DNA of 64,000 nucleotides from Peptococcaceae bacterium BRH_c4b (GCA_000961595.1 LADO01000029.1:1-64000), one strand, 5' to 3'. Numbered from the stretch's first letter, positions 1 through 21,176 are shown. Made by a program: numbers and translations. Notes: generated by a model not told the origin, from the letters alone.

Positions 1-250
1 ATTACGATTAGGACATTTGTCCGGCTAAAAATCTCTTAGTATCGCAGTATTCCTTGCTTTTTTGGGCATCCCCACCTTTCACAAGGACAAAAATGGTGTA
101 TTGGGGACTTTCCGGTATAGGCGGGATGGAAGGAGCCCGTAGGGCGACTGGAATCCCGCCTATACCGGCGGCGCGGCCTGGGGGACCGTCCACGCCCCCA
201 CTTGCCCAGGTTCATTTTTTAGGAATACACCCGTGCGGACATTTGTCCGG
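1..250. other. Gene-free left edge with palindromes and a hairpin
   Basis: No convincing gene lies here. The stretch carries two copies of GGACATTTGTCC (11-22 and 237-248), both followed by a C/T-variable GGnTAAAAATC tail, and a perfect 16-bp inverted repeat (112-127 with 153-168, 25-nt loop). The short open frames across it overlap these repeats and show no family signature. The stretch is downstream of the DUF1670 gene pair, so the hairpin could end that transcript, but neither flank has a long T-run. Confidence 0.6.
112..168. repeat. Perfect 16-bp inverted repeat (hairpin)
   Basis: Arm CCGGTATAGGCGGGAT at 112-127 is exactly complementary to 153-168, with a 25-nt loop that contains a smaller CCCGTAGGGC-like pairing. 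It is GC-rich and lies downstream of the leftward DUF1670 operon. It may be a terminator-like structure or a small repeat element; the sequence does not decide which. Confidence 0.7.
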
Positions 251-316
251 TTAAAAATCCTTGTTATTACTGGGTTCTGGGGAGCACCCGGTGCCGGTGT
301 CCGGACATATGTCCGG
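237..316. promoter_or_regulatory. Paired GGACA-N2-TGTCC palindromes at the DUF1670 operon 3' end
   Basis: GGACATTTGTCC at 237-248 and the perfect 16-bp palindrome CCGGACATATGTCCGG at 301-316 flank the stop codon of the downstream DUF1670 gene; the second lies inside its last codons. The same core recurs at 11-22 and, upstream of the operon, at 1994-2005. Repeated dyads of this size suggest binding sites for a dimeric DNA-binding protein. The neighbouring HTH proteins are the obvious candidates, by inference only. Confidence 0.5.
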
Positions 317-1087
317 TGCCTGCCCGGTTTCAAAAAGCTCCGGGTGATGGTGCTTGATTATCTCCAGGTGCTGCTTCACTACTTGTTTACCCCGGCCAGT
401 GAGATGGCTGATTTCGGTTATCTCCATCCCCCGGCGCACAAGAAATCTTATCCGCTCGTAATCTTTAATGTACCTGTCTACGGCTTCCTGACTGTGGTTG
501 ACCTGGCGGGCAATATCCGGCGGGGCAACTTTCTTTTCGTACAGATCAAGAATAATTCGTTTATGGGTGATTCCGGGACCCATGTCCAGTTTGTTGCCTT
601 TGATTGGTATAACTACCTGGTGCTCTTCCTGGTATTCTTTAATCCGCTTGGATATGGACATGGGTGACCTGTTTACCATTAGGGCAAGCTCTTCGATGGT
701 CAACAGGCCCCCCTGCTCGTAGGCGGAGTTGACTAGCCGGACAATTTTCGCTTTATCCCGCTCTGTGCTCGTCAGGTTCTCCAACATCTGGAGGTCTTCT
801 TCACTGATGAGTGGGAGGGAGATGCGGGTATTTTTGTAGTCTTCGACCCGCTGGCCCAGCCTTGGCTTCTTATTGTCGCTGGAGGTGGTGACCCAGGCCA
901 GATTGCCATAGGCTTCTTCGCCGGCTCTGGGGTAGAATTCGTCTCTCAACTGGCAGATATCGTCGGCAATGAGCTCGATCACTTTATGGCTGCCGATAAG
1001 CTTGTATTCCCGCTCAAGCATTTCGATGAGAGCGCTTCGAAAAGTTCGCTTTTTAATGGCACTTTCTTTATGATTACCCATTTTCAT
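251..1087 (-). CDS. DUF1670-type HTH protein, second of a pair
   Basis: 278 aa, resembling the DUF1670 family of unknown function. After an N-terminal alpha-helical region come three helix-turn-helix-like segments (about residues 125-155, 185-212 and 221-243), with the motif DMGPGITHK at 168-176 between the first and second. The upstream gene has the matching motif DIGPSISHK at the same place, so the two are diverged paralogs. The start codon overlaps the stop of the upstream gene in ATGA, indicating translational coupling and probably equal amounts of two partners. The C-terminal tail is short and Cys/Pro-containing and is encoded over one of the local palindromes. Function is unknown: a transcription regulator or the DNA-binding part of a mobile element are both possible. 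Confidence 0.7.
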   Translation of the reverse strand: MKMGNHKESAIKKRTFRSALIEMLEREYKLIGSHKVIELIADDICQLRDEFYPRAGEEAYGNLAWVTTSSDNKKPRLGQRVEDYKNTRISLPLISEEDLQMLENLTSTERDKAKIVRLVNSAYEQGGLLTIEELALMVNRSPMSISKRIKEYQEEHQVVIPIKGNKLDMGPGITHKRIILDLYEKKVAPPDIARQVNHSQEAVDRYIKDYERIRFLVRRGMEITEISHLTGRGKQVVKQHLEIIKHHHPELFETGQAPDICPDTGTGCSPEPSNNKDF

Positions 1088-3335: not shown

Positions 3336-4514
3336 TTAACAATGTTTCATACTGAAAAGATGCTCTTTAAGTGCATTATAGCAATCTCCGGAAGAAGGCG
3401 GACATCCCTTTATTTTTATTGCTTCCTCGATATGTTTATTTGCGCCAATAGCGCATTTTCCGAAAAGCAAAACCCGCTTTGAACTGGCTGAAGCCTTTAC
3501 TTCCCCGGATACACACATTTCTACATTATCATATGATTGTCCAGGGCACTCTCTAAAAAATGTGTGCAGAGCCAGGACAATACCAAAAGCGCAGCCAGAA
3601 CATAAAGACAGTCCCGGAGCAGGCATTGATACACCTTTAATAGCGTACATATCTAATACTCTTTCAGGCCAGTGGTCTTCCCACTGCGCGTTAATCTTAA
3701 CCTTTTCAAGTTGTTCACCGATTATCCTAACTGATTCCATGCTTAAAGGCTCACCGGTTATGGCGGCATAGTCAGAAAGATGTTTTACATCCTCCGGGTT
3801 TTGTCCTAATATGCTTGCTCCTGCCATATCAACCGCCAACATATTGGTTCCGGCCAGAATAACACCTAATTCCTGCCATTCAGTACTTACAGGTCCCCTA
3901 TCAACAGTATAGATTCCATCAACAATATTCAGCTGAGGCTTAATATAAGATCCCAACAAAGCAATGCTTTTCTCCAGGCCTGCTGAATGAAAACTTTTTT
4001 TGCTTTTAAAGCTTAATACACCCTTCAGATTTTTCATGCTCAGAGTAACTCTGGTTTGGTGATGTGTTTTCAAAACCGGCACATTAATAATAAAATCCGA
4101 CTCCCGAACAATAGATGATACTTCTACTTTATTTTCTCCCAGCTGCACCTCATCAAAGGGATGCTTGTAAAAATCAATTAACTTAACATCATAGCGCCTG
4201 GCAAGCTCTGTTATACCGGCGGCCTCAAAAGCTGTTTCAGTGTTTATGCCTAAATCCGGTAGAAGAACAGAACCCTCCCCTATTGAAATGTCTGTACATC
4301 CAAATTCCCTGACAAATTGAATTATTTCTTCAAGAACTGTAGTAGTCGTTAATACTCCTTTGATGAAATTTCTATATATTTTGCCTCCGACAACAACGTT
4401 GGGTTTGATCAAAACCTTATGGGTGGATTTCAGTTCTTTGGAACCATTACACATTGAAATTGCTTGTGCAACGCTTTTTGCCCCGGGTAAATATTTTACA
4501 ACTGCAACCTCCAT
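3336..4514 (-). CDS. DUF362 family protein
   Basis: 392 aa. The N-terminal two thirds match the DUF362 fold: a KPNVV motif near residue 38, a region FIINVPVLKTHHQTRVTLSMKN (about 138-159, quoted in part) and an Asp-rich segment around NIVDGIYTVDRGPVS. The C-terminal third has several Cys (SLCSGCAF, RECPGQ, EMCVSG, GKCAIG, GCPPSSGDC) but not the usual CxxCxxCxxxC ferredoxin repeats; these could bind a cluster or metal. DUF362 proteins often accompany anaerobic redox enzymes, and this gene lies just downstream of the reductase/dehydratase set. An electron-transfer or assembly role is inference only. Confidence 0.75.
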   Translation of the reverse strand: MEVAVVKYLPGAKSVAQAISMCNGSKELKSTHKVLIKPNVVVGGKIYRNFIKGVLTTTTVLEEIIQFVREFGCTDISIGEGSVLLPDLGINTETAFEAAGITELARRYDVKLIDFYKHPFDEVQLGENKVEVSSIVRESDFIINVPVLKTHHQTRVTLSMKNLKGVLSFKSKKSFHSAGLEKSIALLGSYIKPQLNIVDGIYTVDRGPVSTEWQELGVILAGTNMLAVDMAGASILGQNPEDVKHLSDYAAITGEPLSMESVRIIGEQLEKVKINAQWEDHWPERVLDMYAIKGVSMPAPGLSLCSGCAFGIVLALHTFFRECPGQSYDNVEMCVSGEVKASASSKRVLLFGKCAIGANKHIEEAIKIKGCPPSSGDCYNALKEHLFSMKHC

Positions 4515-5042: not shown

Positions 5043-5828
5043 TCAAACAAGTATTCCGGATTTCTCTACAGCTATCAATGCAGCGCCTATAGCACCGCTA
5101 ATCAAAGGCTCCTCAGGGACCAGGAGTTCTTTTTTAATAACTCTCTCAATTGTCTTTACCAGACCTATATCTTTAGCTCCTCCCCCTGTTATAGCACAGA
5201 CTTCTTCCATTTTTATTTTCTGTATCATACTATAAATTTTTATCGCCATAGCCTGATGCAATCCTGCTATAATATCTTCCTTTCTGGCCCCTTCAGCAAT
5301 TCTTGAGATTGCTTCCGTTTCAGCAAAAACAGAACAGCCAGTGCTGAATCTAACCGGATTGTTTGATTTTACAGACAGAGCACCCATCTCTTCCAGGTTT
5401 ATTCTTAATACCTTGGCAATAATCTGTAATATACGCCCGCTTCCAGCTGCACACCTATCATTAATCACACAATCAGCAACTTTTCCTTTGTCAGTTACTT
5501 TAATTACTCTTGTAGATTGGTCGCCCACTTCAATTACAATATTGACGGAAGGAAAGAGAAATTTTATCCCCCGGCTCTGGCAGGAAACCTCACTGCTTTC
5601 AACATAAGGGTAGGGAATAAAGGACGCACCCAAACCTGTTGCCCCAATAATTTTTAAATCACTAAAAGTCAAATTTGCTTTTTCCAGCGCATTATTTAAT
5701 ACAGTTATGGCAGCATTTTTAAATTTACCGCTGCTAGGTAGAATACTGTAAGATAAAACTTTTTCACCCTCAATGATCACGGACTTTGACATAAACGAAC
5801 CAATATCCAGACCTGCTTGGTAGAACAT
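5043..5828 (-). CDS. BcrD/BadG/HgdC-type activator ATPase, subunit 2
   Basis: 261 aa of the ASKHA-fold BcrA/BadF/BzdQ/HgdC family, which couples ATP hydrolysis to low-potential electron transfer. It has the N-terminal phosphate loop GLDIGS (residues 6-11), EVGDQSTR at 100-107, cysteines at about 83 (SCQSRG) and 126 (INDRCAAGSGR) expected to hold a 4Fe-4S cluster between two subunits, and a TGGGAKD adenosine motif. EVGDQS replaces the usual DIGGQD, as in the D-type subunit of class I benzoyl-CoA reductases (from memory). It starts 17 nt after the paralogous ATPase gene, with a GAGAGGTG ribosome site. Two unlike ATPases suggest a heterodimeric activator rather than the homodimer of 2-hydroxyacyl-CoA dehydratases. 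Confidence 0.85.
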   Translation of the reverse strand: MFYQAGLDIGSFMSKSVIIEGEKVLSYSILPSSGKFKNAAITVLNNALEKANLTFSDLKIIGATGLGASFIPYPYVESSEVSCQSRGIKFLFPSVNIVIEVGDQSTRVIKVTDKGKVADCVINDRCAAGSGRILQIIAKVLRINLEEMGALSVKSNNPVRFSTGCSVFAETEAISRIAEGARKEDIIAGLHQAMAIKIYSMIQKIKMEEVCAITGGGAKDIGLVKTIERVIKKELLVPEEPLISGAIGAALIAVEKSGILV

Positions 5829-5845
5829 TTTTTAGCACCTCTCTG

Positions 5846-6712
5846 CTATGCTCCGGGATTACTTGTACTGTCTTCTTTAAAGAATGTCACCGCTTCAAGT
5901 TTTCTATTTTTTTTCATTTCAGCTAAATCTTGATCGGACATTTTGCCTGCTTTTTCCTGGGCTAAGACTGCTGCACCCAACGCACCGGTTAGCAAAGGCT
6001 CCTCAGCAACCAGCACAGGATAGCCTATCTTTTCTTCCAGCCATTTCCGCAAACCTTGATTCTTAGCCCCTCCACCGGTAAGGACAACTTCTTTCTCAAT
6101 TTTTATTTTTCCAACCATAGTATAAATTCTGTTGGCAAGAGCTTTATGCAGACCCGCCAGTATATCTTCAATGGCACATCCCTCAGAAAGCCGTAACAAT
6201 ATTTCCTGTTCGGCAAATATTGTACAGGTTTTACTAATCTCCGCCGGCTTCTTTGAGCGGAGGGAAATCTCACCAATATCCTCCAAAGCCAATCCAAGTG
6301 TATCTGCAATTATTTCCAGAAACCTGCCGGTGCCTGCAGCGCACTTGTCATTCATAATAAAGTTTTTCATTTTTCCATTTTCTACCTTTATTCCCTTGCA
6401 ATCCTGCCCACCTACATCAATAATAGTTTTCACGCCAGGAAATATCCAGTTAACTCCGCGCATATGACAGGTAATCTCACTTATCTGGGCATCTGCAAAA
6501 GGAACATTTATTCTGCCGTATCCGGTAGCTATAATATAGTCAACTTCTTCAAAACCCAGGTTAACCTTTTGTAGCGTCTCCAGTACGGCTTCGTGAGCCA
6601 TCCTGCGGTGCTCGGCCCCGGTCGGCCTGATCAATGTTGATATAATTTCTTTTTCATTTCTTACAACTACTTTGGTAATAGTCGAACCAATATCTATACC
6701 TGCAAAAAACAA
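5846..6712 (-). CDS. BcrA/BadF/HgdC-type activator ATPase, subunit 1
   Basis: 288 aa, TTG start with an AAAGGGTG ribosome site. Canonical family motifs are present: GIDIGSTITK (5-14), DVGGQDCK (99-106), cluster cysteines near 82 (ITCHMRG) and 124 (NDKCAAGTGRF), and TGGGAKN. The protein would form the ATP- and 4Fe-4S-binding activator with the product of the next gene, reducing the two-subunit reductase/dehydratase encoded upstream. The C-terminus has about 25 extra charged residues compared with the partner. A 12-bp hairpin in the 5' leader (6751-6780) separates it from the structural-subunit genes. Confidence 0.88.
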   Translation of the reverse strand: MFFAGIDIGSTITKVVVRNEKEIISTLIRPTGAEHRRMAHEAVLETLQKVNLGFEEVDYIIATGYGRINVPFADAQISEITCHMRGVNWIFPGVKTIIDVGGQDCKGIKVENGKMKNFIMNDKCAAGTGRFLEIIADTLGLALEDIGEISLRSKKPAEISKTCTIFAEQEILLRLSEGCAIEDILAGLHKALANRIYTMVGKIKIEKEVVLTGGGAKNQGLRKWLEEKIGYPVLVAEEPLLTGALGAAVLAQEKAGKMSDQDLAEMKKNRKLEAVTFFKEDSTSNPGA

Positions 6713-6750
6713 TATTATACACCCTTTACAAGGTTTATTAGTAGTAAAAT

Positions 6751-6780
6751 GAGTTAAGCATCCTGACAGATGCTTAACTC
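6751..6780 (-). terminator. Intra-operon hairpin between structural and activator genes
   Basis: GAGTTAAGCATC (6751-6762) is exactly complementary to 6769-6780, with a 6-nt loop, followed on the minus strand by ATTTTACTAC. The T-run is weak, so partial termination, attenuation or an mRNA-stability hairpin is more likely than full termination. It would lower activator expression relative to the structural subunits (inference). Confidence 0.6.
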
Positions 6781-6789
6781 ACCAACCAC

Positions 6790-7941
6790 TTAACCTATAT
6801 TTTCGGCGAAAGCTTGAAATCTTGTCCGCAAAGGTTCTAAAGCGGTTGTTGAATAATCCTGCTCAATTACCAGCACAGGAATACCAATATCCTCGAAATA
6901 GTCCCTCACTTCAGGTATTTCGTAGCCGTGGATATCACAATTCCGGATTATATTAAAATATACTCCGTTGACATTCCATTCTTTAGCCATTATCTTCAGG
7001 TATTTAAATCTATTGTCAAGATCTTCGCTGCGCGTGCCTTTAGTATCTCTAAAAGTTCTTGGACATACTATCTTGTCAAGATAGCGGACAGCCAGTCCCT
7101 CAAAAGGATCGCTGGTTTCATCCACGTCAACCCAGAAGCTTCTGGTGCCAATGGCAGTATCGTCAATTACGATGTTCAGCCCGCAATCTTCTATTAACTT
7201 GGTCATGGCAATATTATCAATTAATGACCCCCAGATTAGTATCCTGCCTTTCTTTTGCCCGGGTCCCGCGGACCTATTGCTGACCTCTTCAATAACCTCT
7301 TCCAATAGGCTGTTGCCTTCCTCGGCAGGAATGCACATTATGGAAACCATAACCTGTAGCATTTCGGAACCGGATACTAAGGGAGGATCTTGCCTGTTCA
7401 ACTTATATAAGCTGCGCACTAAAGATCTTTGCTTGTTATAAAGCTTGACAGCTTCTCTGAGAGCTTCCTGGCTAAAATTACAGCCTGATGTTTTTTCCAG
7501 CTCATCTTTTAAGTAGTTAAGCTGTACTTTAAAGAAATCAATGGCTGCAGCATGGTTGGAATGGGGAACATCCAGATAAAACGAGCAGGGGCTTTTAAGA
7601 TACGACCTCCATATATAGCTCACTCTTTCTGCCCCGTCACAAGCATGTGCCCCAATAAAGGCATCCAGGAAATCATACCTGCCTTTCATGGCAACATCCA
7701 GTATACTCCGGTAAAAAGCACACATAACCGTTGGCAGATAAGCATCTGCTTCGGTTATTGGTTCATTCATATCCCCTAAAATCCTAATCGGAACATAACC
7801 CAGTGCAGTCATTATTTCTACGGGAGGATAGCAGCACAAATACCCTGCTATTTTTTTACCTTCCGCTTTTAATTCCCTGGCTCTTTGTTGCGGGTCAAGA
7901 TAAATTTGTGCAGCCCTGGCCAGTCCTTTTAACTCATTCAT
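6790..7941 (-). CDS. BcrC/HgdB-type reductase/dehydratase beta subunit
   Basis: 383 aa counting from the ATG at 7941, chosen because GGAGGG lies just upstream; an in-frame codon at 7965 would overlap the preceding gene. It belongs to the 2-hydroxyacyl-CoA dehydratase / benzoyl-CoA reductase family. Three conserved cysteines, placed as expected for binding a 4Fe-4S cluster, are visible in GYLCCYPP, GAHACDGAERV and NIIRNCDIHG. The length is close to HgdB and BcrC. Only 17 nt separate it from the alpha subunit gene, so the two form a heterodimer-encoding operon. The enzyme would accept one electron at very low potential from the ATPases encoded downstream. Reductive dearomatisation and radical dehydration cannot be told apart from this sequence alone. 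Confidence 0.85.
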   Translation of the reverse strand: MNELKGLARAAQIYLDPQQRARELKAEGKKIAGYLCCYPPVEIMTALGYVPIRILGDMNEPITEADAYLPTVMCAFYRSILDVAMKGRYDFLDAFIGAHACDGAERVSYIWRSYLKSPCSFYLDVPHSNHAAAIDFFKVQLNYLKDELEKTSGCNFSQEALREAVKLYNKQRSLVRSLYKLNRQDPPLVSGSEMLQVMVSIMCIPAEEGNSLLEEVIEEVSNRSAGPGQKKGRILIWGSLIDNIAMTKLIEDCGLNIVIDDTAIGTRSFWVDVDETSDPFEGLAVRYLDKIVCPRTFRDTKGTRSEDLDNRFKYLKIMAKEWNVNGVYFNIIRNCDIHGYEIPEVRDYFEDIGIPVLVIEQDYSTTALEPLRTRFQAFAENIG

Positions 7942-7958
7942 GCATATCCCTCCAGTTC

Positions 7959-9311
7959 TTACCATTCAAAGCCTTCTTTTTTTCTTATCTCCCTGTAATG
8001 GTCCATTGTCTCAATAAAAGCTTCAATTTTTACATGGGCTTCCTCTTCGTTAAACACACGTAAATCAACAATATCGCCTTCAACCACAACCGACGGCACT
8101 TTGCATTTTTCCATAAGAAGATTGCGCAAGTGCATCAGTGTGTAAGTAGCTGGACGGCATGACAACAAGGGGTGACAGAACAAACCATCAATCCTGTAAT
8201 CCTCTACCCACTTCAGATAGGGAGCAGTAAAAATGGTGGGATCCATACAATTTAGTTGAGCGGTAGGGGTATATTCGTTAAATTTATGAAATGAATATCT
8301 GGCAATAAGCTCCAGTGGATCATTGACCCCTTCTCTTTCAGATTCCGGAAGCGGGCTCGGCGCATGATAATTCCAACTTTCAATAGCAAAGGCAATCCCG
8401 TGTTTTGCTGCGAATTCATCAAATATGCCCAATGTGTGCCAGGGGGGCAACTCAGCAAAAGCCATCCTGTATTTCTCATTGGGTATAGCCCCTATCTTAT
8501 TGTCAACTTTATATTTTACTTCTTCGTAAACTCTTTGATAAAAAGCAAGCGCTTCCTTATCGTCAGGCAAATATAAATGTGGTATCATAATAGCCCAAAA
8601 ATCGGTATTAACCGCTGGCGAAGGAACCGATTTTCTCAATAAATCCACTTTGTGGGCAAGTTCATGCGTTTTGAATGTAGTATCCAGGCGTTCGCTGAGA
8701 TTGTCCCAGTCCATCTTTCTGCCTGTCAGTTTTTCCAGGAATTCAACAAAACTCCTTAATTCCCGCACCATAAATTTGATGTTTTCTTCCTTGTAGCCGG
8801 GCATGAAAAACTCTGCTACACCTGTTTGCGGGAATTCAAGCGTCCATACGGGAACATCCATATACCTTCCCATACTTTGAAACCACTTATACCTGGCGTC
8901 ACATACAGCTCCGCAGCCAAGTAGAAATAGCGGTTTGGGCATGCCCCCACCCGGTGCATCTTCAGGTATTATGAAATTATTTTCCTTTAGCCTGCGGGTA
9001 TAACCTATACCATTTCTGGCGTAACCACAGGTTGTGTTGGGTACGCCGTCATTTTCAGCATAATCCAGAAATGGCTCTGCCTTCCTTACTGCAGCACAAA
9101 AAGCGCCGTAGTTTTCCGGGTAACAAAGCTCAATTCCAATAGCTTTGGCAATTGTACCCCCAAGCCACCAGTCAACCATAGACCATGCCACAGGCTTGCC
9201 CTCTTCTGCAGCCAAGCGTGCGCTGGCAAGTATTCTTTTGCCGAAATTACCGGCTTCCCTGGCAGTCTGTAGTGTTTTGGCCGACGAGGTTTTTTTCTTT
9301 TTTTGTTCCAA
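7959..9311 (-). CDS. BcrB/BzdO/HgdA-type reductase/dehydratase alpha subunit
   Basis: About 450 aa. The in-frame GTG at 9320 lies against the AAGGAG ribosome site, so the TTG at 9311 (spacing about 9) is preferred. It belongs to the 2-hydroxyacyl-CoA dehydratase / benzoyl-CoA reductase large-subunit family. Putative cluster cysteines are in NTTCGYAR, LLGCGAVCD and LFCHPLLSCRP. The length suits BcrB/BzdO-like proteins as well as HgdA. It forms the catalytic dimer with the following gene, and the full set of four (alpha, beta, two ATPases) has the composition of an ATP-dependent aryl-CoA reductase. None of the ring-cleavage genes of the benzoyl-CoA pathway is nearby, so the substrate is open. 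Confidence 0.82.
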   Translation of the reverse strand: MEQKKKKTSSAKTLQTAREAGNFGKRILASARLAAEEGKPVAWSMVDWWLGGTIAKAIGIELCYPENYGAFCAAVRKAEPFLDYAENDGVPNTTCGYARNGIGYTRRLKENNFIIPEDAPGGGMPKPLFLLGCGAVCDARYKWFQSMGRYMDVPVWTLEFPQTGVAEFFMPGYKEENIKFMVRELRSFVEFLEKLTGRKMDWDNLSERLDTTFKTHELAHKVDLLRKSVPSPAVNTDFWAIMIPHLYLPDDKEALAFYQRVYEEVKYKVDNKIGAIPNEKYRMAFAELPPWHTLGIFDEFAAKHGIAFAIESWNYHAPSPLPESEREGVNDPLELIARYSFHKFNEYTPTAQLNCMDPTIFTAPYLKWVEDYRIDGLFCHPLLSCRPATYTLMHLRNLLMEKCKVPSVVVEGDIVDLRVFNEEEAHVKIEAFIETMDHYREIRKKEGFEW

Positions 9312-9484
9312 GTTAACCACTCTCCTTTCTTTGACGGACCTTTTGAAGCAGGCATTGCCTTAAAAACTGTCGCAATTATTCGTTAATTACGAACATTTGC
9401 ATCAATCGCTATGTCACCCATCTCTGCCCTAATAAAGAACAGCAAGAATTCCAGAACTCATCCATAACAAATAATTATAGTTGC

Positions 9485-9881: not shown

Positions 9882-10397
9882 TTACAGATCCGTCTTTGTT
9901 AAACGGGTGTTTATTGCTATCTTGTAAACATCCTCTAAACATTGACGTGAATAGGCCGCTTCTATTTTTTCTTCTACAGATAAGCTATGGGTATAACACG
10001 TGCCATGCACATAATTATCACTAAAATGTTCAAACTGATCTGAAGGAATTAAGGAAGCTGAAGTCTGAATAATAGCCTTTATAGCATCCTGCGACAACTC
10101 CTCCAATACTAAGCATCCCTGTTTTCCACCAATCAGTTGAAAAACACTTTTTGCCTGACCACTGTTTATTACTTTTAAGCCTACAAGATTTTTTACTAAA
10201 TCAGATACTTTATGACAGTGAGAATAGGGCACCCTCAGCATGCTGGATCGTGCATCAATTATTACCAAATCCTTTAAGTCGACAGTAATTGACAACTCCA
10301 TTTCATGTACGGTATCCACCAGAGTGGCTTCTATTTGAATAATGAATTTATCTATTTCTTTACCGCTAATGAATTTACTCCGATGGAAAATCTTCAA
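9882..10397 (-). CDS. DUF2889 domain protein
   Basis: 171 aa, TTG start preceded by GGGGGT. The pattern is that of DUF2889: an N-terminal FHRSKFISG-like strand, a central 'DLKDLVIIDARSSMLRVPYSHC' type region (residues about 47-68), and GGKQGCLVLEELSQDA near 113-128, where the family has a GCxHLxEL motif. The function of the family is not established; members recur near CoA-thioester catabolic genes (from memory). Here the gene lies between the hydrolase and the meaB remnant in the same orientation, so a supporting role in the same pathway is plausible but unproven. Confidence 0.65.
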   Translation of the reverse strand: MKIFHRSKFISGKEIDKFIIQIEATLVDTVHEMELSITVDLKDLVIIDARSSMLRVPYSHCHKVSDLVKNLVGLKVINSGQAKSVFQLIGGKQGCLVLEELSQDAIKAIIQTSASLIPSDQFEHFSDNYVHGTCYTHSLSVEEKIEAAYSRQCLEDVYKIAINTRLTKTDL

Positions 10398-11561: not shown

Positions 11562-11972
11562 CTATACCTGAAGCATTACCAGTGCTTCACCGGTTAATAC
11601 TTCCTTTCCATTCTGGTTCTTACATACTGTACTGAGTTTAATTTGATTTTTACCATCAATTTTCTCCAATACCTGAACTTCGGCAGCAATGGTATCGCCT
11701 ATATAAACTGGTGCGCGAAACTTCAGGTTTTGGGATAGATAAACAGTTCCAGGCCCAGGTAATTTCGTTCCTAATACTGCCGATATAAGGCCTGCTGTTA
11801 ACATCCCATGTGCAATCCGGTTCTTAAACATTGTGCCCGAAGCATACACACTGTCAAAGTGCACCGGATTAAAATCGCTGCTCACTGCCCCATACATTAA
11901 AATATCTGCTTCAGTTATTGTTTTACTCGTTGATGCGCTTTGCCCGACCTCTATTAATTCATATTTACTCAA
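11562..11972 (-). CDS. MaoC-like (R)-specific enoyl-CoA hydratase
   Basis: 136 aa from the TTG at 11972, which has an AGAAGG ribosome site; an upstream ATG at 12014 would add 14 unconserved residues and lacks one. It is a hot-dog fold hydratase with the catalytic motif DFNPVHFD followed by RIAHGML, as in PhaJ/MaoC enzymes that interconvert enoyl-CoA and (R)-3-hydroxyacyl-CoA. It is the third gene of the mutase operon (large subunit, small subunit, MaoC). That suggests the mutase product or substrate is a 3-hydroxyacyl-CoA that is then dehydrated, or the reverse (inference). Confidence 0.85.
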   Translation of the reverse strand: MSKYELIEVGQSASTSKTITEADILMYGAVSSDFNPVHFDSVYASGTMFKNRIAHGMLTAGLISAVLGTKLPGPGTVYLSQNLKFRAPVYIGDTIAAEVQVLEKIDGKNQIKLSTVCKNQNGKEVLTGEALVMLQV

Positions 11973-12027
11973 ATTACTACCTTCTTTCGGGTCCGTTAAG
12001 AAGCCTGTACACACCCAGAATATTTTT

Positions 12028-12435
12028 TTATGCTGATGCGGCTTTCTTCTCCCTTACAGCTTTTTTAATAAGTTTAACAATAGTATCAATAGGTGTGTTG
12101 GGAGTAAAAACTTCGACCATCCCGGCTGCTTTCAAGCCAGGAATATCGACAGGGGGAATAACACCGCCAATTACTACCGTAATATCATTGATATTCTTCT
12201 CTTGCAGCAGCTTTATCACTTTTGGCCCCAGTGTGCTATGATTGCCTGCAAGGGTGCTGAGTCCTATCACATCAACTCCCTCTTGAATAGCCATGTTAAC
12301 AATTGCTTCTGGAAACTGATTGCCAACATAGATTACTTCCATGCCCGCATCCCGTAAAAGCTTGGCCACTGACAATGCCCCGCGCCAGTGAATATCCAGC
12401 CCTAATTTAGCTACAAGAACACGAATTTTATCCAT
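12028..12435 (-). CDS. B12-binding small subunit of acyl-CoA mutase
   Basis: 135 aa. The cobalamin-binding signature is present: DIHWRG (residues 14-19, the DxHxxG motif, His16 as lower axial ligand), GLSTLAGNH (the SxL block) and VVIGGVIPP (the GG block). The length is that of stand-alone small subunits of isobutyryl-CoA and 2-hydroxyisobutyryl-CoA mutases, not of fused methylmalonyl-CoA mutase. It lies 21 nt after the large-subunit gene. It binds adenosylcobalamin base-off/His-on and docks to the TIM barrel of the large subunit. Confidence 0.93.
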   Translation of the reverse strand: MDKIRVLVAKLGLDIHWRGALSVAKLLRDAGMEVIYVGNQFPEAIVNMAIQEGVDVIGLSTLAGNHSTLGPKVIKLLQEKNINDITVVIGGVIPPVDIPGLKAAGMVEVFTPNTPIDTIVKLIKKAVREKKAASA

Positions 12436-12456: not shown

Positions 12457-14145
12457 TTAGATAAGTGGGAATTTCCATAAACCTAATTCTTTCCGGAAAA
12501 CCTTTTGAATTTCACCCAGGGTGGCATATTCCCGTACAGCCTCTTTAACCGTTGGCATTACATTTTCACTGGTTCTACATACTTCCGCCACTCTATTGAG
12601 ACATGCCTGAACCTTTTCGTTATCACGATTCTTACGCAATTCGATTAACTTAGCCTTTTGACGCTCTTCTGTTGCAGGATACTCGAATACTTCAATCTCG
12701 GCAGACTGCGCCTCCTCAGCATTGAAGCAATTAACACCAACGATTTTATTCTCGCCGCTTTCAATACCTTTTTGCTCCTGGTAAGCATGATTCGCGATTT
12801 CCTGGTGCAGCCATCCGGTTTCAACCGCCTTAACCAGCCCGCCCATTTTTTCTATTTCTTCAATATAACTGTTGATACGCTTAACCATTTCTTCCGTTAG
12901 TGATTCAACATAGTAAGAACCTGCCAGAGGATCAACAGTATTACAAACATTTGTTTCATTCTGTAAGATTTGCTGGGTGCGCAGGGAAATCAGGGCCGCA
13001 CTTTCAGTAGGCGCTGAAAATGCCTCGTCATAAGAGTCTATATGCAGCGATTGAGCTCCGCCTAAAATTGCTGCCAAACCTTGTATAGCAGAGCGGGCTA
13101 TATTATTCAACGGCTCAATCGCCGGCAAGGAGATTCCTGCGGTTTGCACATGAAAACGCATTAAGCAGGACCGCAGTTCCTGAGCCTTAAACCTGTTCTT
13201 GATAATGTCGTAATATACTTTGCGGGAAGCCCTGCATTTGGCTATTTCCTCGAAAAAGTCATTACATAAATCCCAGAAGAATGACATTCTGCGGGCTACC
13301 ATATCTATTGTTAAACCGCGTTTGATCATTTCCTCAGCAGTCTGTATGGCATTGGCAATGGCTATGGCGACTTCCTGTATAGCATTTGTTCCTGCCTCGC
13401 GCAGATTATAGCCGTTAAAACTGATAGGATTCCATCTTGGTAAATACCTGCTGGCATACTCAACAGCATCACACTGGAGACGGAACGACTGCCTGGGATT
13501 TAATATTTCGGGACCGCTGCCCACAGCGGTTTCCATTATAAAGTCATTCTGATTGGTCCCAGCCAGGTCTTTAAAATCTACTCCTCTTTTTTCAGCCATG
13601 ACCAGGTACATGCTAAGAATAGGTACAGTCGTACTGGGCAAGTGGGTTACGATGGATGAGCTTACTTTAGCAATATCAATACCATCGAATAAGGCTTCTA
13701 TATCCTGCAGAGAATCTATAGCACTTCCGCATTGGCCAACATTTCCTTCCGCCTCGGGAGAGTCGGAATCATATCCCCGAATGGTAGGAAGGTCGAATAA
13801 AAGGCTCGCTCCAGTGGCCCCGTGGTCGAGCAAAAATTTTATACGCTTGTTGCAGTCCTCAGGTGCGCCAAAACCGGCCAACTGCCTTACAGTAAACAAC
13901 CTGCCCCGGTACATATTGGGGTATACCCCGCGAACAAATGGAGGTTGCCCGGAAAAGCCAATATCCTCCAAATAGTTAATATCTGATACATCCTCGGGGC
14001 TGTATATCAGCTTTATAGGTATACCGGAATACGTGTTATAATCCCCCGTATCATTTTTACCCTTGAGAGTTTCCTGTTCCCATTTCGTCCTTTCCTGAAC
14101 AACTGCCTGGATGTACTCCTTGTCGTAACACTTATTTACTGTCAT
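12457..14145 (-). CDS. Acyl-CoA mutase large subunit, atypical substrate pocket
   Basis: 562 aa, the length of IcmA/HcmA-type subunits without a B12 domain. Family blocks are clear: RGVYPNMYRGR (72-82), FDLPTIRGYDSDSP (117-130), GTNQNDF (196-202) and LGGAQSLHIDSYDEA. The enzyme would rearrange the carbon skeleton of an acyl-CoA by radical chemistry. Specificity positions are unusual. The residue that is Tyr89 in methylmalonyl-CoA mutase, Phe in isobutyryl-CoA mutase and Ile90 in 2-hydroxyisobutyryl-CoA mutase is Leu89 (RQLAGFG). The position of HCM Asp117 is Leu116. The substrate-contacting His244 of methylmalonyl-CoA mutase (GYHMQEAG) is Asn247 (GYNLREAG). A sigma-54 promoter lies about 110 nt upstream. 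Family assignment is secure; the substrate is not. Confidence 0.92.
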   Translation of the reverse strand: MTVNKCYDKEYIQAVVQERTKWEQETLKGKNDTGDYNTYSGIPIKLIYSPEDVSDINYLEDIGFSGQPPFVRGVYPNMYRGRLFTVRQLAGFGAPEDCNKRIKFLLDHGATGASLLFDLPTIRGYDSDSPEAEGNVGQCGSAIDSLQDIEALFDGIDIAKVSSSIVTHLPSTTVPILSMYLVMAEKRGVDFKDLAGTNQNDFIMETAVGSGPEILNPRQSFRLQCDAVEYASRYLPRWNPISFNGYNLREAGTNAIQEVAIAIANAIQTAEEMIKRGLTIDMVARRMSFFWDLCNDFFEEIAKCRASRKVYYDIIKNRFKAQELRSCLMRFHVQTAGISLPAIEPLNNIARSAIQGLAAILGGAQSLHIDSYDEAFSAPTESAALISLRTQQILQNETNVCNTVDPLAGSYYVESLTEEMVKRINSYIEEIEKMGGLVKAVETGWLHQEIANHAYQEQKGIESGENKIVGVNCFNAEEAQSAEIEVFEYPATEERQKAKLIELRKNRDNEKVQACLNRVAEVCRTSENVMPTVKEAVREYATLGEIQKVFRKELGLWKFPLI

Positions 14146-14254: not shown

Positions 14255-14270
14255 TGCAATTCTCATGCCT
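14255..14270 (-). promoter_or_regulatory. Sigma-54 (-24/-12) promoter of the mutase operon
   Basis: The minus strand reads AGGCATGAGAATTGCA: GG and GC are 10 nt apart and the -12 block TTGCA is perfect. It lies about 110 nt upstream of the mutase large-subunit ATG and faces away from the divergent sigma-54 activator gene. Confidence 0.65.
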
Positions 14271-14450: not shown

Positions 14451-16388
14451 ATGCCTGATAAAAAAACACTGTGGAAAAAAGCACTTGATAGCGGAGACTT
14501 TACAGCATTTAAGAACAACCCGGTAATCACCAAGTCCTGGGAAAGATGCATGAAGTTTGGCATAAATCCTTATAATGTTAATAATATGGGGGACGAGCTG
14601 GAATATAGCCGTCTCAAGGAGATCCGGGACAAGTACGGTGAGCTTATTTATATATCCTCGCCAATCATGAGCGAATTATATTTCAGCTTAAAGGGCTCGG
14701 AAACAGCAATTTTTTTGGTTGCTCCAAACGGCTATATTTTAAAATCATTCGGGGATAAAAAAATAAGCAATGAGGTATCCAGCATCAGGTTGGTTGAGGG
14801 GGCCAACTGGCAGGAGGAAAGTAAAGGGACAAATGCTATAGGTACTGCTATCCAGGAGCAAAAGCCCGTTCATATTCTAGGAGGTGAGCATTTCTGTGAG
14901 CCTTTACATTCGTTTCATTGTTTTGCCTCGCCCATTTTCGATGTTAACAGAACTATAATAGGGGTATTGAATGCAACTATTTTAAGCAACCAGCCGTTCC
15001 AGCACTTGATGGCCCTGATGGTAGCGACAACAAAAGCTATTGAAACCCAGTTGCTCTTCATTAACTTGCAAAAACAGCTATTGTATAATCACAAGAAATC
15101 AGCCGCCCTGCTTGACAGTATGGACAACGGCATCTTCTGGGTAAACCAGGAAGGATGCATAACCAACTCTAATTCCCGTTGCGGTGATATTATGTATTTT
15201 GACGCAGCCAGCTTTCATGGGCGGCATATAGATGATGTTTTCGAAATGCCGGCACCTTTTACTGAACTGATGGATGGTTTTAATGATATTGATTTGTCAA
15301 GGATACAACTAAGATATAAGCAGAACACCTTACCTTGCCGGATCAAGCCAATACTTGGCAACAGCAGTGAAGTGCTAGGAGCAGCCGTTGTATTAGAGAA
15401 CAATATTAAATCAATGGTAGATAGGCCCAGGAGAGAAAAAGGGAAATTAACCTTTGAAGATATAATAGGTAACAGTAATGCAATACTTGATTCTATTAGA
15501 CTGGCAAGGCGTGCCGCTGCCACATCTTTAACTGTTTTAATAACGGGGGAGACAGGAACTGGTAAGGAGATTTTTGCCAGGGCCATTCACAACGAAAGCA
15601 ACTTCAGTAATGGCCCATACATTACCATAAACTGTGGTGCTATACCCGAAACGCTTATAGAAAGTGAGCTTTTCGGTTATGAAGAAGGGGCATTTACCGG
15701 AGCAAAAAAAGGGGGAATTCCCGGCAAGTTCGAATTGGCCAACCATGGCACTATACTTCTTGACGAGATTGGAGAAATGCCTTTAAATATCCAGGTTAAG
15801 CTACTTCGCGTATTACAGGAAAGGGAAATAGTCAGGGTTGGGGGTACTAAGCCGGTCAATATTGATACAAGGATAATTGCGGCTACAAATAAGGATCTTA
15901 AAACAGAAGTCCAAAAGGGGCGATTCAGACAGGATCTGTTTTACAGATTAAATGTTATAAATATACGGATCCCGCAGCTTCGGGAGCGTAAAGAAGATAT
16001 TATTCCACTGGCCAATTACTTTCTGGAAAAGCATTGTTATCAGTGCAGGATCTCTCCACCCGCCGAATCTGCCTTGATAAACTATTCCTGGCCGGGCAAC
16101 GTCAGGGAACTGGAAAATGTTATAGAAAGGACGGCCAGCTTTTGTGATCATGGCTTAATAAAACTTAGCAATTTACCAGAGGAAGTAAAGACTCAAAATT
16201 CGGCAAAGGCCTTTATATCAGAAGAGAAAACCAGCCTTAAAAATTTAGAGGCAAAAACTATTGTTGATACGTTAAAAAAATATAATGGGAATTGTACGCT
16301 CACAGCCAATATTTTAGGTATTAGCCGTACTACCCTTTATCGTAAAATGAAGCATCTTGGGATTAACAAAGATCAGTTTCATTTTTGA
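14451..16388 (+). CDS. AcoR-like sigma-54-dependent transcriptional activator
   Basis: 645 aa. An N-terminal GAF-type sensor of the AcoR/DhaR class (about 60-190, with GTNAIGTAIQEQKPVHILGGEH-like sequence) is followed by a PAS-like segment (about 215-320) and a complete AAA+ domain. The AAA+ domain has Walker A GETGTGKE (366-373), the sigma-54 contact loop GAFTGA (413-418), Walker B ILLDEIGE (435-442) and WPGNVRELEN near 547. A Fis-type HTH closes the protein (about 607-640, LTANILGISRTTLYRKMK). It should sense a pathway metabolite and open sigma-54 promoters such as those at 14255, 3148 and 16717. It is divergent from the mutase operon and lies upstream of hbd. Confidence 0.93.
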   Translation: MPDKKTLWKKALDSGDFTAFKNNPVITKSWERCMKFGINPYNVNNMGDELEYSRLKEIRDKYGELIYISSPIMSELYFSLKGSETAIFLVAPNGYILKSFGDKKISNEVSSIRLVEGANWQEESKGTNAIGTAIQEQKPVHILGGEHFCEPLHSFHCFASPIFDVNRTIIGVLNATILSNQPFQHLMALMVATTKAIETQLLFINLQKQLLYNHKKSAALLDSMDNGIFWVNQEGCITNSNSRCGDIMYFDAASFHGRHIDDVFEMPAPFTELMDGFNDIDLSRIQLRYKQNTLPCRIKPILGNSSEVLGAAVVLENNIKSMVDRPRREKGKLTFEDIIGNSNAILDSIRLARRAAATSLTVLITGETGTGKEIFARAIHNESNFSNGPYITINCGAIPETLIESELFGYEEGAFTGAKKGGIPGKFELANHGTILLDEIGEMPLNIQVKLLRVLQEREIVRVGGTKPVNIDTRIIAATNKDLKTEVQKGRFRQDLFYRLNVINIRIPQLRERKEDIIPLANYFLEKHCYQCRISPPAESALINYSWPGNVRELENVIERTASFCDHGLIKLSNLPEEVKTQNSAKAFISEEKTSLKNLEAKTIVDTLKKYNGNCTLTANILGISRTTLYRKMKHLGINKDQFHF

Positions 16389-19196: not shown

Positions 19197-19931
19197 TTAG
19201 TAATTGCTTCCAACTCCAGAAACAACAATGTTATTCAGATCATTTAAATCCTGAAAAGATATAATAGCTCCGTTTGTTCTTCCTTCAACTACAATAGAAG
19301 TTATATTACACAGCAGGCTAATTCTTCCTATAGTGCGTTTTACACCTATTTCTGACTTTCCGGTCATAAATATTTGATCAAGCCTTATACCCGGCAAAAA
19401 AGCTTCCAGTGGTTTCCCTGTTGCACTGGAAGACATGGTGTTGAATATTTTTTCTGCCGCCCGGTTAATGGAGATGACAAACCCCTGACAGTCAACCACA
19501 ATCAAGCCGTTATGCATTGTCTCAATGATCATCTGTAGCTTGCTGATTAGCTTGGCGCCCTCCTTTAACATGGCCATAATCCACTCTGCTTTATTAAAAA
19601 TGCCTACGACCTCATAACTGTCATTGACCATCAGAGCATGCCCCACATGGCTAGTATGAACAAATCCGGCCATTTCCTCGTATGATATACTTTCGTGAAT
19701 AGTAACAACATTTCTGGTAAAGATGTCCGTAATGGGTGTGTCAGGGCTAAAGCCTGAAGCCACGGCATCATAGAGGTCTGCCTTAGACATAAATCCCATC
19801 AGTTTACCATCATCTCCTATTACAGGAAGGCCATCTTGTTTAAACTGCCTGAATAGACGGGCAGCTTTTTGCAAATTATCGTACGGCTTAAGGGGCGTAA
19901 ATTCTCTGTTCATAATGTCAATGATATTCAT
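19197..19931 (-). CDS. CBS-pair plus PAS protein, probably a truncated sigma-54 regulator
   Basis: About 244 aa from the ATG at 19931, chosen for its GAGGTGG ribosome site; in-frame ATGs at 19961 and 20003 are less well placed. Two CBS domains (about residues 1-120: IMNREFTPLKPYDNL, ITDIFTRNVVTIHESI) precede a PAS domain (about 125-235: MHNGLIVVDCQGFVISINRAAEKIF). In this bacterial group the same domain order usually leads into an AAA+ sigma-54-interacting domain and HTH, but here the frame stops right after PAS (FQDLNDLNN). It may be a fragment or a stand-alone sensor that acts through a partner. Confidence 0.7.
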   Translation of the reverse strand: MNIIDIMNREFTPLKPYDNLQKAARLFRQFKQDGLPVIGDDGKLMGFMSKADLYDAVASGFSPDTPITDIFTRNVVTIHESISYEEMAGFVHTSHVGHALMVNDSYEVVGIFNKAEWIMAMLKEGAKLISKLQMIIETMHNGLIVVDCQGFVISINRAAEKIFNTMSSSATGKPLEAFLPGIRLDQIFMTGKSEIGVKRTIGRISLLCNITSIVVEGRTNGAIISFQDLNDLNNIVVSGVGSNY

Positions 19932-20016
19932 TCCACGAACCACCTCTGTATTGTCCTTCATGACTGCTGTAGATAAAACTCCTATGATGTATTCACCATG
20001 CAAAATACAGGCAAAT

Positions 20017-20111: not shown

Positions 20112-21176
20112 TTAATCAAACAGTATCATAGGTTTAATTATACCATCTTCCTTTGTTGCCATCATATTAAAGGCTTTTTCAATCTCGGCAAATTTGAAAG
20201 TATGTGTTGTTAACGGCCTCGGATCTATGCGGCCTGTCTCAATAAGGCGAAGCAAACGTTCCATACGCTCCCTTCCCCCCGGGCAAAGGCCTGTGCGGAT
20301 TGTTTTATCGCTCATGCCTACTCCCCATTCAGCCCTAGGTATCATCAGATATTCACCTTCACCATGATACCCTACATTGGAAATAGTGCCACCCGGCCTT
20401 GTTGCTTTAATGCAATTTTCAAAGGTTATCTGGGAGCCCAAACATTCAATAGCTGAATCTACACCAACACCACCGGTTAAGTTAAATATTTCCTGGACCG
20501 CGTCGACCGCTTTAAAATCAACTACTACGTCAGCCCCGAACTTTCTGGACAACTCCTGCCGTTTTGGATTTGTTTCAACAGTAATAATAAGGCCTGCTCC
20601 CAGAAGACGCGCCCCTGCGGTAGCCATCAGGCCAACCGGTCCCTGACCAAAAATTGCCACGGTTCCTCCAAGAGGAATGCAGGCGTGTTCCGCCCCCATG
20701 AAACCGGTACTGATCATGTCTACAGTATATAGAGCTTCTTCGTCGGATATTTCTTCGGGAATTAAAATGAGGTTTGCCTCGGCATCATTCACATGGAAAT
20801 ACTCAGCCATACTACCGTCCTTAATATTGGCAAACTTCCAGCCTCCCAACATATTGGTACACTGGGAAGTAAATCCACGCTGGCAATTTACACACTTGTA
20901 ACAAGGAGTGATAGCATTTACTACTACTCTATCACCTTCTTTTAGACCTTGTACGGCACTGCCAAGTTTATGAATGATTCCTACTGCTTCGTGACCTAGG
21001 GTCATATTTTCCCTCGGGCCCACTGCGCCATGAACGGTATGAACGTCAGATGTGCATACAAGGGCTCCGGTAGTTTTAAGAATCGCATCGTTGGGACCAG
21101 GTTCAGGAATCGGCTTCTCCATAATACCAATTTTGCCGATCTCATGCATTACGAATGCTTTCATCATTTGCGCCAT
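20112..21176 (-). CDS. Zinc-dependent secondary-alcohol dehydrogenase, copy 1
   Basis: 354 aa, medium-chain dehydrogenase closest in pattern to the Thermoanaerobacter/Clostridium secondary-alcohol (isopropanol) dehydrogenases. Catalytic zinc ligands match: Cys in VCTSDVHTVHG, His-Glu in GHEAVG, and Asp in TVDMISTGFMGAEH. Unlike those enzymes it keeps the four-Cys structural zinc loop (CYKCVNCQRGFTSQC). At the cofactor site the NADP-binding GSRP of the thermophile enzyme is ETNP, so NAD(H) is more likely. It would interconvert a secondary alcohol and a ketone (for example 2-propanol/acetone). It is near-identical to the copy at 23471-24526, and their upstream regions are also similar. An in-frame ATG six nucleotides downstream (MKAFVM after MAQM) is an alternative start. 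Confidence 0.88.
   Translation of the reverse strand: MAQMMKAFVMHEIGKIGIMEKPIPEPGPNDAILKTTGALVCTSDVHTVHGAVGPRENMTLGHEAVGIIHKLGSAVQGLKEGDRVVVNAITPCYKCVNCQRGFTSQCTNMLGGWKFANIKDGSMAEYFHVNDAEANLILIPEEISDEEALYTVDMISTGFMGAEHACIPLGGTVAIFGQGPVGLMATAGARLLGAGLIITVETNPKRQELSRKFGADVVVDFKAVDAVQEIFNLTGGVGVDSAIECLGSQITFENCIKATRPGGTISNVGYHGEGEYLMIPRAEWGVGMSDKTIRTGLCPGGRERMERLLRLIETGRIDPRPLTTHTFKFAEIEKAFNMMATKEDGIIKPMILFD

What the first reader, a model, noticed from the sequence alone, without database searches (positions are those of the whole stretch)
5043..9311. Four-subunit BCR-like complex with two different activator ATPases in a Gram-positive context
Two cluster-binding structural genes are followed by two unlike ASKHA ATPases, one with DVGGQD and one with EVGDQS. 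Homodimeric activators are the rule for 2-hydroxyacyl-CoA dehydratases, whereas the alpha/beta plus A/D composition is that of class I (ATP-dependent) aryl-CoA reductases. Strict anaerobes generally use the ATP-independent class II enzyme, and no ring-cleavage genes are nearby. The complex may reduce or dehydrate a new CoA ester.
Basis: partly seen in the sequence, partly recalled or inferred. Interest (0 to 1): 0.66.

Follow-up and report, generated by a model that had tools for sequence, protein, structure and literature searches.

The report
Ketone-pathway four-subunit radical CoA enzyme
Four neighbouring genes encode an ATP-powered iron-sulfur enzyme related to benzoyl-CoA reductases; close relatives are switched on when sulfate-reducing bacteria grow on acetone, so it probably serves acetone breakdown rather than breakdown of aromatic rings, and what exactly it does is an open question that can now be tested.

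Summary
Window 5043-9311 (minus strand) holds two HGD-D subunits and two unlike activator ATPases. Both ATPases keep the two cluster cysteines. In seven orthologous sets the second ATPase always has a degenerate phosphate-2 motif (E-V/I-G-D/Y-Q-S/A).

The aromatic reading is not supported. All four proteins miss every benzoyl-CoA reductase (BCR) equivalog cut-off, the genome lacks the ring-cleavage hydrolase, and ring-pocket residues are changed.

Alpha-subunit orthologues 83-87% identical lie in Desulfotruncus arcticus and Desulfoscipio geothermicus, inside the cluster that Frey et al. 2021 showed is induced by acetone. The HGD-D pair there is induced, but its function is unassigned and the ATPases are not discussed. 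In 113 genomes of the class, the alpha (E<=1e-80) and the thiamine-diphosphate (ThDP) ketone-formylating enzyme share five genomes; the only discordant genome is 64% complete with a 48%-identical alpha.

New here: the two ATPases come from their own duplication, not from the tested MbrPQ pair. Beta keeps five of six double-cubane ligands, with a cysteine gained next to one of them. Alpha has an invariant Arg where BzdO has its catalytic His.

Best reading: an ATP-driven, non-aromatic reductase-type CoA enzyme in the ketone C1-addition pathway. A 2-hydroxyacyl-CoA dehydratase is the main rival.

The parts
7959..9311 (-). alpha subunit (HGD-D; BzdO/HadB-like), 450 aa from the TTG at 9311 (or 453 aa from the GTG at 9320); probable active-site subunit
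   Evidence: PF06050. The three cluster Cys, Glu65, Tyr97 and Trp46 of BzdO are conserved; His131->Arg, Gln274->Leu, Tyr298->Trp in all 11 orthologues. AF2 model matches HadB and BzdO equally.
6790..7965 (-). beta subunit (HGD-D; BzdN/HadC-like), 391 aa; electron-transfer subunit
   Evidence: Keeps equivalents of BzdN Cys36, 73, 100, 293, 327; Cys263->Ala; extra Cys beside Cys36. AF2 model closest to BzdN: TM 0.87, rmsd 2.2.
5846..6712 (-). ATPase 1 (canonical activator, DVGGQD, both cluster Cys)
   Evidence: TIGR00241 271 bits; closest solved sequences MbdQ 243 and HadI 233 bits
5043..5828 (-). ATPase 2 (divergent activator, EVGDQS, both cluster Cys)
   Evidence: TIGR00241 200 bits; sister to ATPase 1, not to MbdP
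3336..4514 (-). DUF362 protein with Cys-rich C-terminus
   Evidence: PF04015 148 bits; 43% relative beside another HGD-D pair and ThDP enzyme on C20
2025..3065 (-). HMGL-like lyase
   Evidence: 89% identical to the D. arcticus gene at the position of acetone-induced 04019
9882..10397 (-). DUF2889 protein
   Evidence: PF11136; 76% identical orthologue in the D. arcticus cluster
11562..12014 (-). MaoC-type hydratase
   Evidence: PF01575; 73-76% to D. geothermicus/D. arcticus; the D. arcticus protein (04029) is abundant on acetone
12028..12435 (-). B12-binding small mutase subunit
   Evidence: PF02310
12457..14145 (-). acyl-CoA mutase large subunit, 2-hydroxyisobutyryl-CoA mutase-like
   Evidence: Best solved match 4r3u, 459 bits versus 387 for methylmalonyl-CoA mutase
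14451..16388 (+). sigma-54-type activator, divergent from the mutase
   Evidence: ORF; orthologues at the same place in L016 and L017
16849..17703 (+). 3-hydroxybutyryl-CoA dehydrogenase
   Evidence: NF004474 481 bits, over cut-off 408
1..678 (.). contig-end overlap, identical to C7:678-1; the cluster continues on C7 with the ThDP enzyme (C7:973-3003)
   Evidence: blastn 678/678; D. arcticus has HMGL then ThDP in the same order

Best explanation
This is a four-subunit member of the benzoyl-CoA reductase / 2-hydroxyacyl-CoA dehydratase superfamily that serves the C1-addition pathway by which sulfate reducers degrade acetone and other ketones. Proposed working: (1) an ATPase 1/ATPase 2 heterodimer with one bridging [4Fe-4S] cluster (two Cys from each subunit: shown in sequence; heterodimer: inferred) takes one electron at a time from a ferredoxin-like donor (inferred) and fires it on ATP hydrolysis, mainly by ATPase 1 (inferred from the degenerate motif of ATPase 2). 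(2) The electron enters beta, which keeps the proximal-cluster Cys and two of three distal-cubane Cys of BzdN, and probably holds a modified double cubane. (3) It reaches the three-Cys, open-site [4Fe-4S] of alpha, where a small non-aromatic CoA ester is converted. My most likely reaction is a net reduction that supplies or primes the C1/acyl unit that the ThDP enzyme adds to the ketone. Identity and pathway are well supported (about 0.85). The reductase reading is about 0.5, and the exact substrate is unknown.
For: Alpha orthologues at 83-87% with the same gene order in D. geothermicus and D. arcticus; the HGD-D pair there is induced by acetone, and in D. arcticus also by butanone and isopropanol (PMC8084838); pairs annotated the same way are induced in Desulfosarcina cetonica, pentanones included (PMC7888143). 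Alpha and ThDP enzyme share five of 113 genomes of the class, with one discordant low-completeness genome. The cluster runs from contig C44 into the ThDP enzyme on C7, whose nearest solved relatives are oxalyl-CoA decarboxylases and 2-hydroxyacyl-CoA lyases. For a reductase: unlike activators, as in BCR/MBR/BZD (PMC11971306); distal-cubane Cys kept, which HadC lacks; beta model closest to BzdN; a paralogous set on C21 beside a tungsten aldehyde oxidoreductase, ferredoxin and FAD oxidoreductase.
Against: Alpha scores as well against the dehydratase HadB as against BzdO. BzdO's acid/base His131 is Arg here. The third distal-cubane ligand (Cys263) is Ala. Sulfate reducers have little ATP to spend on stoichiometric ATP-driven reduction (PMC7888143). 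No activity has ever been measured, and induction in this organism is unknown. Two loci in this genome (C25, C27) hold an alpha near a ThDP enzyme without beta or ATPases.
Confidence: 0.5

Rival explanations
1. A 2-hydroxyacyl-CoA dehydratase of a new kind: it removes water from the tertiary 2-hydroxyacyl-CoAs made by the ThDP enzyme (2-hydroxyisobutyryl-CoA to methacrylyl-CoA, 2-hydroxy-2-methylbutyryl-CoA to tiglyl-CoA) through a ketyl radical, using ATP only to prime the enzyme.
For: The ThDP partner is expected to make 2-hydroxyacyl-CoAs; alpha is as close to HadB as to BzdO; hydratase and dehydrogenase genes lie in the cluster; a second HGD-D pair with a single activator sits next to another ThDP enzyme, ECH, HBD and thiolase on C20; catalytic ATP use suits a sulfate reducer's energy budget.
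Against: Solved dehydratase activators HadI and HgdC are single proteins, but two unlike ATPases occur here; HadC lacks the distal-cubane Cys kept here; the induced 2-hydroxyisobutyryl-CoA mutase already handles that intermediate, so a dehydratase would be redundant for acetone.
Confidence: 0.3
2. A dedicated electron-activation unit for another enzyme of the pathway (for example to reactivate the ThDP enzyme or the corrinoid mutase, or to feed the tungsten oxidoreductase), with no CoA ester of its own.
For: The C21 copy is beside a W-aldehyde oxidoreductase, ferredoxin and FAD oxidoreductase; alpha copies occur near ThDP genes on C25/C27 without beta and ATPases.
Against: Alpha keeps Glu65, Tyr97, Trp46 and the open three-Cys site of CoA-ester enzymes; a MeaB-type G protein already accompanies the mutase in related loci.
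Confidence: 0.12
3. A genuine class I benzoyl-CoA (aryl-CoA) reductase acquired by a sulfate reducer.
For: Same four-subunit composition; beta closest to BzdN.
Against: All Bcr/Bzd equivalog cut-offs missed by a wide margin; ring-pocket Gln274, Tyr298, Leu302, Leu383 and His131 changed; no ring hydrolase over cut-off in a complete genome; orthologues induced by acetone.
Confidence: 0.04

Closest known systems
[quoted passage not shown] (Desulfoscipio) geothermicum 101197/101198 (Frey, Kassner, Schink 2021)
   Same: Orthologous alpha (83-87%) and beta (72-81%), same neighbours, same ketone-degradation cluster
   Different: The paper lists only two subunits, does not discuss the two ATPases and gives no function; the window's mutase is a different lineage (47-49%)
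Class I benzoyl-CoA reductase, BZD type (BzdNOPQ)
   Same: Two HGD-D subunits and two unlike ATPases; three-Cys cluster, Glu65, Trp46; five of six double-cubane Cys; beta fold (TM 0.87)
   Different: About 22-27% identity; His131->Arg; Gln274 and Tyr298 lost; Cys263->Ala with a neighbouring Cys gained; no aromatic pathway
Class I MBR type (3-methylbenzoyl-CoA reductase, MbdONPQ)
   Same: One canonical and one degenerate ATPase in a heterotetramer
   Different: MbdN lacks the distal-cubane Cys; the ATPase pair is from a separate duplication
2-Hydroxyisocaproyl-CoA dehydratase HadBC with activator HadI
   Same: Fold, three-Cys catalytic cluster, Glu, Tyr; alpha equally similar
   Different: Single activator; HadC lacks Cys36; different active-site residues; below both NCBIfam cut-offs
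Double-cubane cluster protein (DCCP/DCCP-R)
   Same: Beta keeps most double-cubane ligands
   Different: DCCP is one homodimeric subunit with one activator; score 205 against a cut-off of 350

Membership tests
Class I benzoyl-CoA reductase (BCR/BZD/MBR) | Two HGD-D subunits plus two unlike BadF/BcrA-type ATPases | tested here: met
   Gene content and motifs
Class I benzoyl-CoA reductase (BCR/BZD/MBR) | Passes the curated equivalog cut-offs for BcrA-D or BzdN/O/Q | tested here: not met
   e.g. BzdN 152 of 454, BzdO 99 of 449, BzdQ 179 of 380, BcrA 174 of 578 bits
Class I benzoyl-CoA reductase (BCR/BZD/MBR) | Aromatic-ring pocket and base (BzdO His131, Gln274, Tyr298) | tested here: not met
   Arg, Leu, Trp in all 11 orthologues; His131 is also absent in MbdO
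Class I benzoyl-CoA reductase (BCR/BZD/MBR) | Ring-cleavage hydrolase encoded in the genome | tested here: not met
   TIGR03200: best 114 bits, cut-off 464
Class I benzoyl-CoA reductase (BCR/BZD/MBR) | ATP-dependent reduction of an aryl-CoA | not testable with these tools
   Needs purified enzyme
2-Hydroxyacyl-CoA dehydratase (HAD) | Single (homodimeric) activator | tested here: not met
   Two unlike ATPases conserved together in six loci with both ORFs called, plus G072 by tblastn
2-Hydroxyacyl-CoA dehydratase (HAD) | HadB/HadC equivalog cut-offs | tested here: not met
   120 of 750 and 164 of 700 bits
2-Hydroxyacyl-CoA dehydratase (HAD) | Beta subunit without double-cubane ligands | tested here: not met
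   Cys36 equivalent conserved here, Pro in HadC
2-Hydroxyacyl-CoA dehydratase (HAD) | Dehydration of a 2-hydroxyacyl-CoA with catalytic ATP | not testable with these tools
   Needs enzyme assay
Double-cubane cluster protein | Six-Cys ligand set and NF040772 cut-off | tested here: not met
   Five of six Cys, 205 of 350 bits
Ketone-induced BCR-like pair of sulfate reducers | Orthologous subunits in a syntenic cluster with HMGL, MaoC, B12 mutase and ThDP enzyme | tested here: met
Ketone-induced BCR-like pair of sulfate reducers | Induction by ketones in this organism | not testable with these tools
   Shown only for D. arcticum, D. geothermicum, D. cetonica and D. biacutus

The most novel reading that the evidence does not exclude
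The first non-aromatic enzyme with the two-ATPase, double-cubane BCR architecture: it spends ATP to reduce a C1- or carboxyl-level precursor to the activated formyl unit (formyl-CoA level) used by the ThDP enzyme, which would solve the missing first step of anaerobic acetone degradation. Its heterodimeric activator evolved independently of those of aryl-CoA reductases.
Probability: 0.15. Interest if true: 0.85.

Novelty: new variant of a known kind. Interest (0 to 1): 0.55.

Why it matters
[quoted passage not shown] A strictly co-occurring ATP-driven low-potential enzyme is a concrete candidate for what those assays lacked, and it widens the BCR/HAD superfamily to a non-aromatic member with unlike activators.

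Tried and rejected
Aromatic BCR: rejected. ATPase 1/2 as orthologues of MbdQ/MbdP: disfavoured by AU tests (p 0.047 and 0.0145); BcrAD and BzdPQ sequences could not be fetched, so only family scores compare with them. Placing alpha between HadB and BzdO by tree: long branches, not decided. Sigma-54 pattern scan: chance level window-wide. Wider Bacillota sample (398 genomes): no further alpha at E<=1e-80. Reference sequences of BzdNO, HadBC, MbdON, MbdPQ, HadI, HgdC and DCCP were taken from HMMER printouts, so their ends (and much of MbdN) are missing.

Full report
What is there. On the minus strand the window carries alpha (7959-9311/9320), beta (6790-7965), ATPase 1 (5846-6712) and ATPase 2 (5043-5828). 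Families: PF06050 twice and PF01869 twice, all far over cut-off; every Bcr, Bzd, Had and DCCP equivalog is hit but missed by a wide margin. Against solved structures alpha scores 91 bits with BzdO and 89 with HadB; beta 150 with BzdN and 128 with HadC; ATPase 1 243 with MbdQ; ATPase 2 189 with HadI and 176 with MbdQ. AF2 models (pLDDT 79 and 80) match this superfamily only: alpha equally HadB and BzdO, beta best BzdN.

Setting. The same strand carries a 2-hydroxyisobutyryl-CoA-mutase-like B12 mutase (best solved match 4r3u), MaoC, a hydrolase, DUF2889, DUF362 and an HMGL-like lyase. The window starts at the end of contig C44, and its first 678 bases are identical to the reversed start of contig C7. 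C7 continues with a ThDP enzyme, a radical-SAM protein, thiolase, HBD, acyl-CoA synthetase, carboxyltransferase and 2-oxoacid:ferredoxin oxidoreductase. That the two contigs join is inferred from this overlap and from gene order, since HMGL is followed by ThDP in D. arcticus.

Known context. The close relatives found by scanning genome contigs include Desulfoscipio geothermicus DSM 3669 and Desulfotruncus arcticus DSM 17038, the two acetone degraders of Frey, Kassner and Schink 2021 (PMC8084838). Their locus tags 04018 to 04035 map in order onto locus L017 (ThDP, HMGL, DUF2889, DUF35, thiolase, ECH, ATPase 2, ATPase 1, beta, alpha, MaoC, mutase, Xaa-Pro peptidase, 'threonine dehydrogenase'); this mapping is my inference from order. 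04026/04027 were induced by acetone, butanone and isopropanol compared with butyrate. The authors note similar pairs in D. biacutus and D. cetonica and suggest a role in acetone activation. The ATPases are not mentioned. So the link of the pair with ketones is known; the four-subunit composition and what follows are not in the papers I could read.

Co-occurrence. In 113 genomes of the class, alpha (E<=1e-80) occurs in six and the ThDP enzyme (E<=1e-120) in five of those six. The odd one, G084, is 64% complete and its alpha is only 48% identical. If G084 is set aside, the naive chance of five-of-five agreement is 7e-9, not corrected for relatedness or joint transfer. In 398 sampled Bacillota genomes no further alpha was found.

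Residues. Using BzdNO numbering (PMC11971306), alpha keeps Cys95, Cys128, Cys380, Glu65, Tyr97 and Trp46, but has Arg for His131, Leu for Gln274 and Trp for Tyr298 in all 11 orthologues. Beta keeps Cys36, 73, 100, 293 and 327 and has Ala for Cys263. In the seven close orthologues an extra Cys follows Cys36; the distant G084 and C20 proteins have Cys263 and no extra Cys. This looks like a ligand swap, which is an inference. HadC has neither Cys36 nor Cys263.

Activators. ATPase 1 and 2 are sisters (94/91; not a starred branch) apart from HadI, HgdC, MbdQ, MbdP and DCCP-R. Holding ATPase 2 with MbdP costs 13.6 log units (p-AU 0.0145), with HadI 29.9 (0.002); ATPase 1 with MbdQ is borderline (0.047). 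The unlike pair therefore most likely arose separately, converging on the pattern of one canonical and one degenerate partner (MbdP DIGGQT; here EVGDQS). BcrA/D and BzdP/Q remain to be added.

Paralogues. The genome has a second full set on C21 (82, 79, 73, 68% identical) followed by a ferredoxin, an FAD oxidoreductase, a tungsten aldehyde oxidoreductase and what reads as an anion-uptake ABC transporter. Alpha copies without beta and ATPases lie near ThDP genes on C25 and C27. A more distant HGD-D pair with one activator lies beside a 38% ThDP relative, DUF362, HBD, thiolase and ECH on C20. ThDP and HGD-D genes thus meet repeatedly in this genome.

Mechanism. Shown: four intact genes, ligand residues, conservation, co-occurrence, and published induction of the orthologues. 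Inferred: heterodimeric activator, ferredoxin donor, modified double cubane, CoA-ester substrate. Unlike activators and distal-cubane cysteines favour a reductase; ThDP partnership and energetics leave a 2-hydroxyacyl-CoA dehydratase open. I put reductase at about 0.5, dehydratase 0.3, an accessory electron role 0.12 and aromatic BCR 0.04.

Noticed in passing
L009 6066-17375 (G000:C21): Second complete four-gene set (82/79/73/68% identical) next to ferredoxin, FAD oxidoreductase, tungsten aldehyde oxidoreductase and a substrate-binding/ABC transporter set that reads like tungstate or molybdate uptake.
   Followed up: partly
L033 11830-13182 (C25), L034 11490-12842 (C27): Solitary alpha genes (65-67%) near ThDP enzymes 83% identical to D. 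arcticus, with no beta or ATPase remnants in the held stretch; surroundings contain gene fragments.
   Followed up: partly
L011 2354-8847 and L037 (C20): Different HGD-D pair with a single activator beside ECH, thiolase, DUF362 (43%), HBD and a 38% ThDP relative; its alpha also has Arg at the His131 position.
   Followed up: partly
L036 3011-5059 (C24): Fourth ThDP homologue (53%); the match holds one TAG stop and a radical-SAM protein follows it.
   Followed up: no
12457-14145: The mutase belongs to another lineage than that of D. arcticus/D. geothermicus (47-49%) and is closer to a deltaproteobacterial MAG (65%), although the alphas are 83-87% alike: the cluster is mosaic. The Arg of methylmalonyl-CoA mutase's carboxylate pocket is replaced (VGSGPEI).
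   Followed up: partly
251-1905: Two adjacent DUF1670/HTH-type genes sit between HMGL and the contig end, where D. arcticus has HMGL directly followed by ThDP.
   Followed up: no
19197-20003: CBS-domain ORF (268 aa) is 86% identical over 241 residues to part of a 702-aa protein on C27; possibly a truncated copy.
   Followed up: no
20112-21176 and 23471-24526: Two zinc alcohol dehydrogenases 76-78% identical to the D. arcticus gene at the position of the acetone-induced 'threonine dehydrogenase' (04035).
   Followed up: no
14256-14270: GG-N10-GC sigma-54-like site upstream of the mutase, facing the divergent sigma-54 activator gene; such matches are at chance level in the window as a whole.
   Followed up: partly
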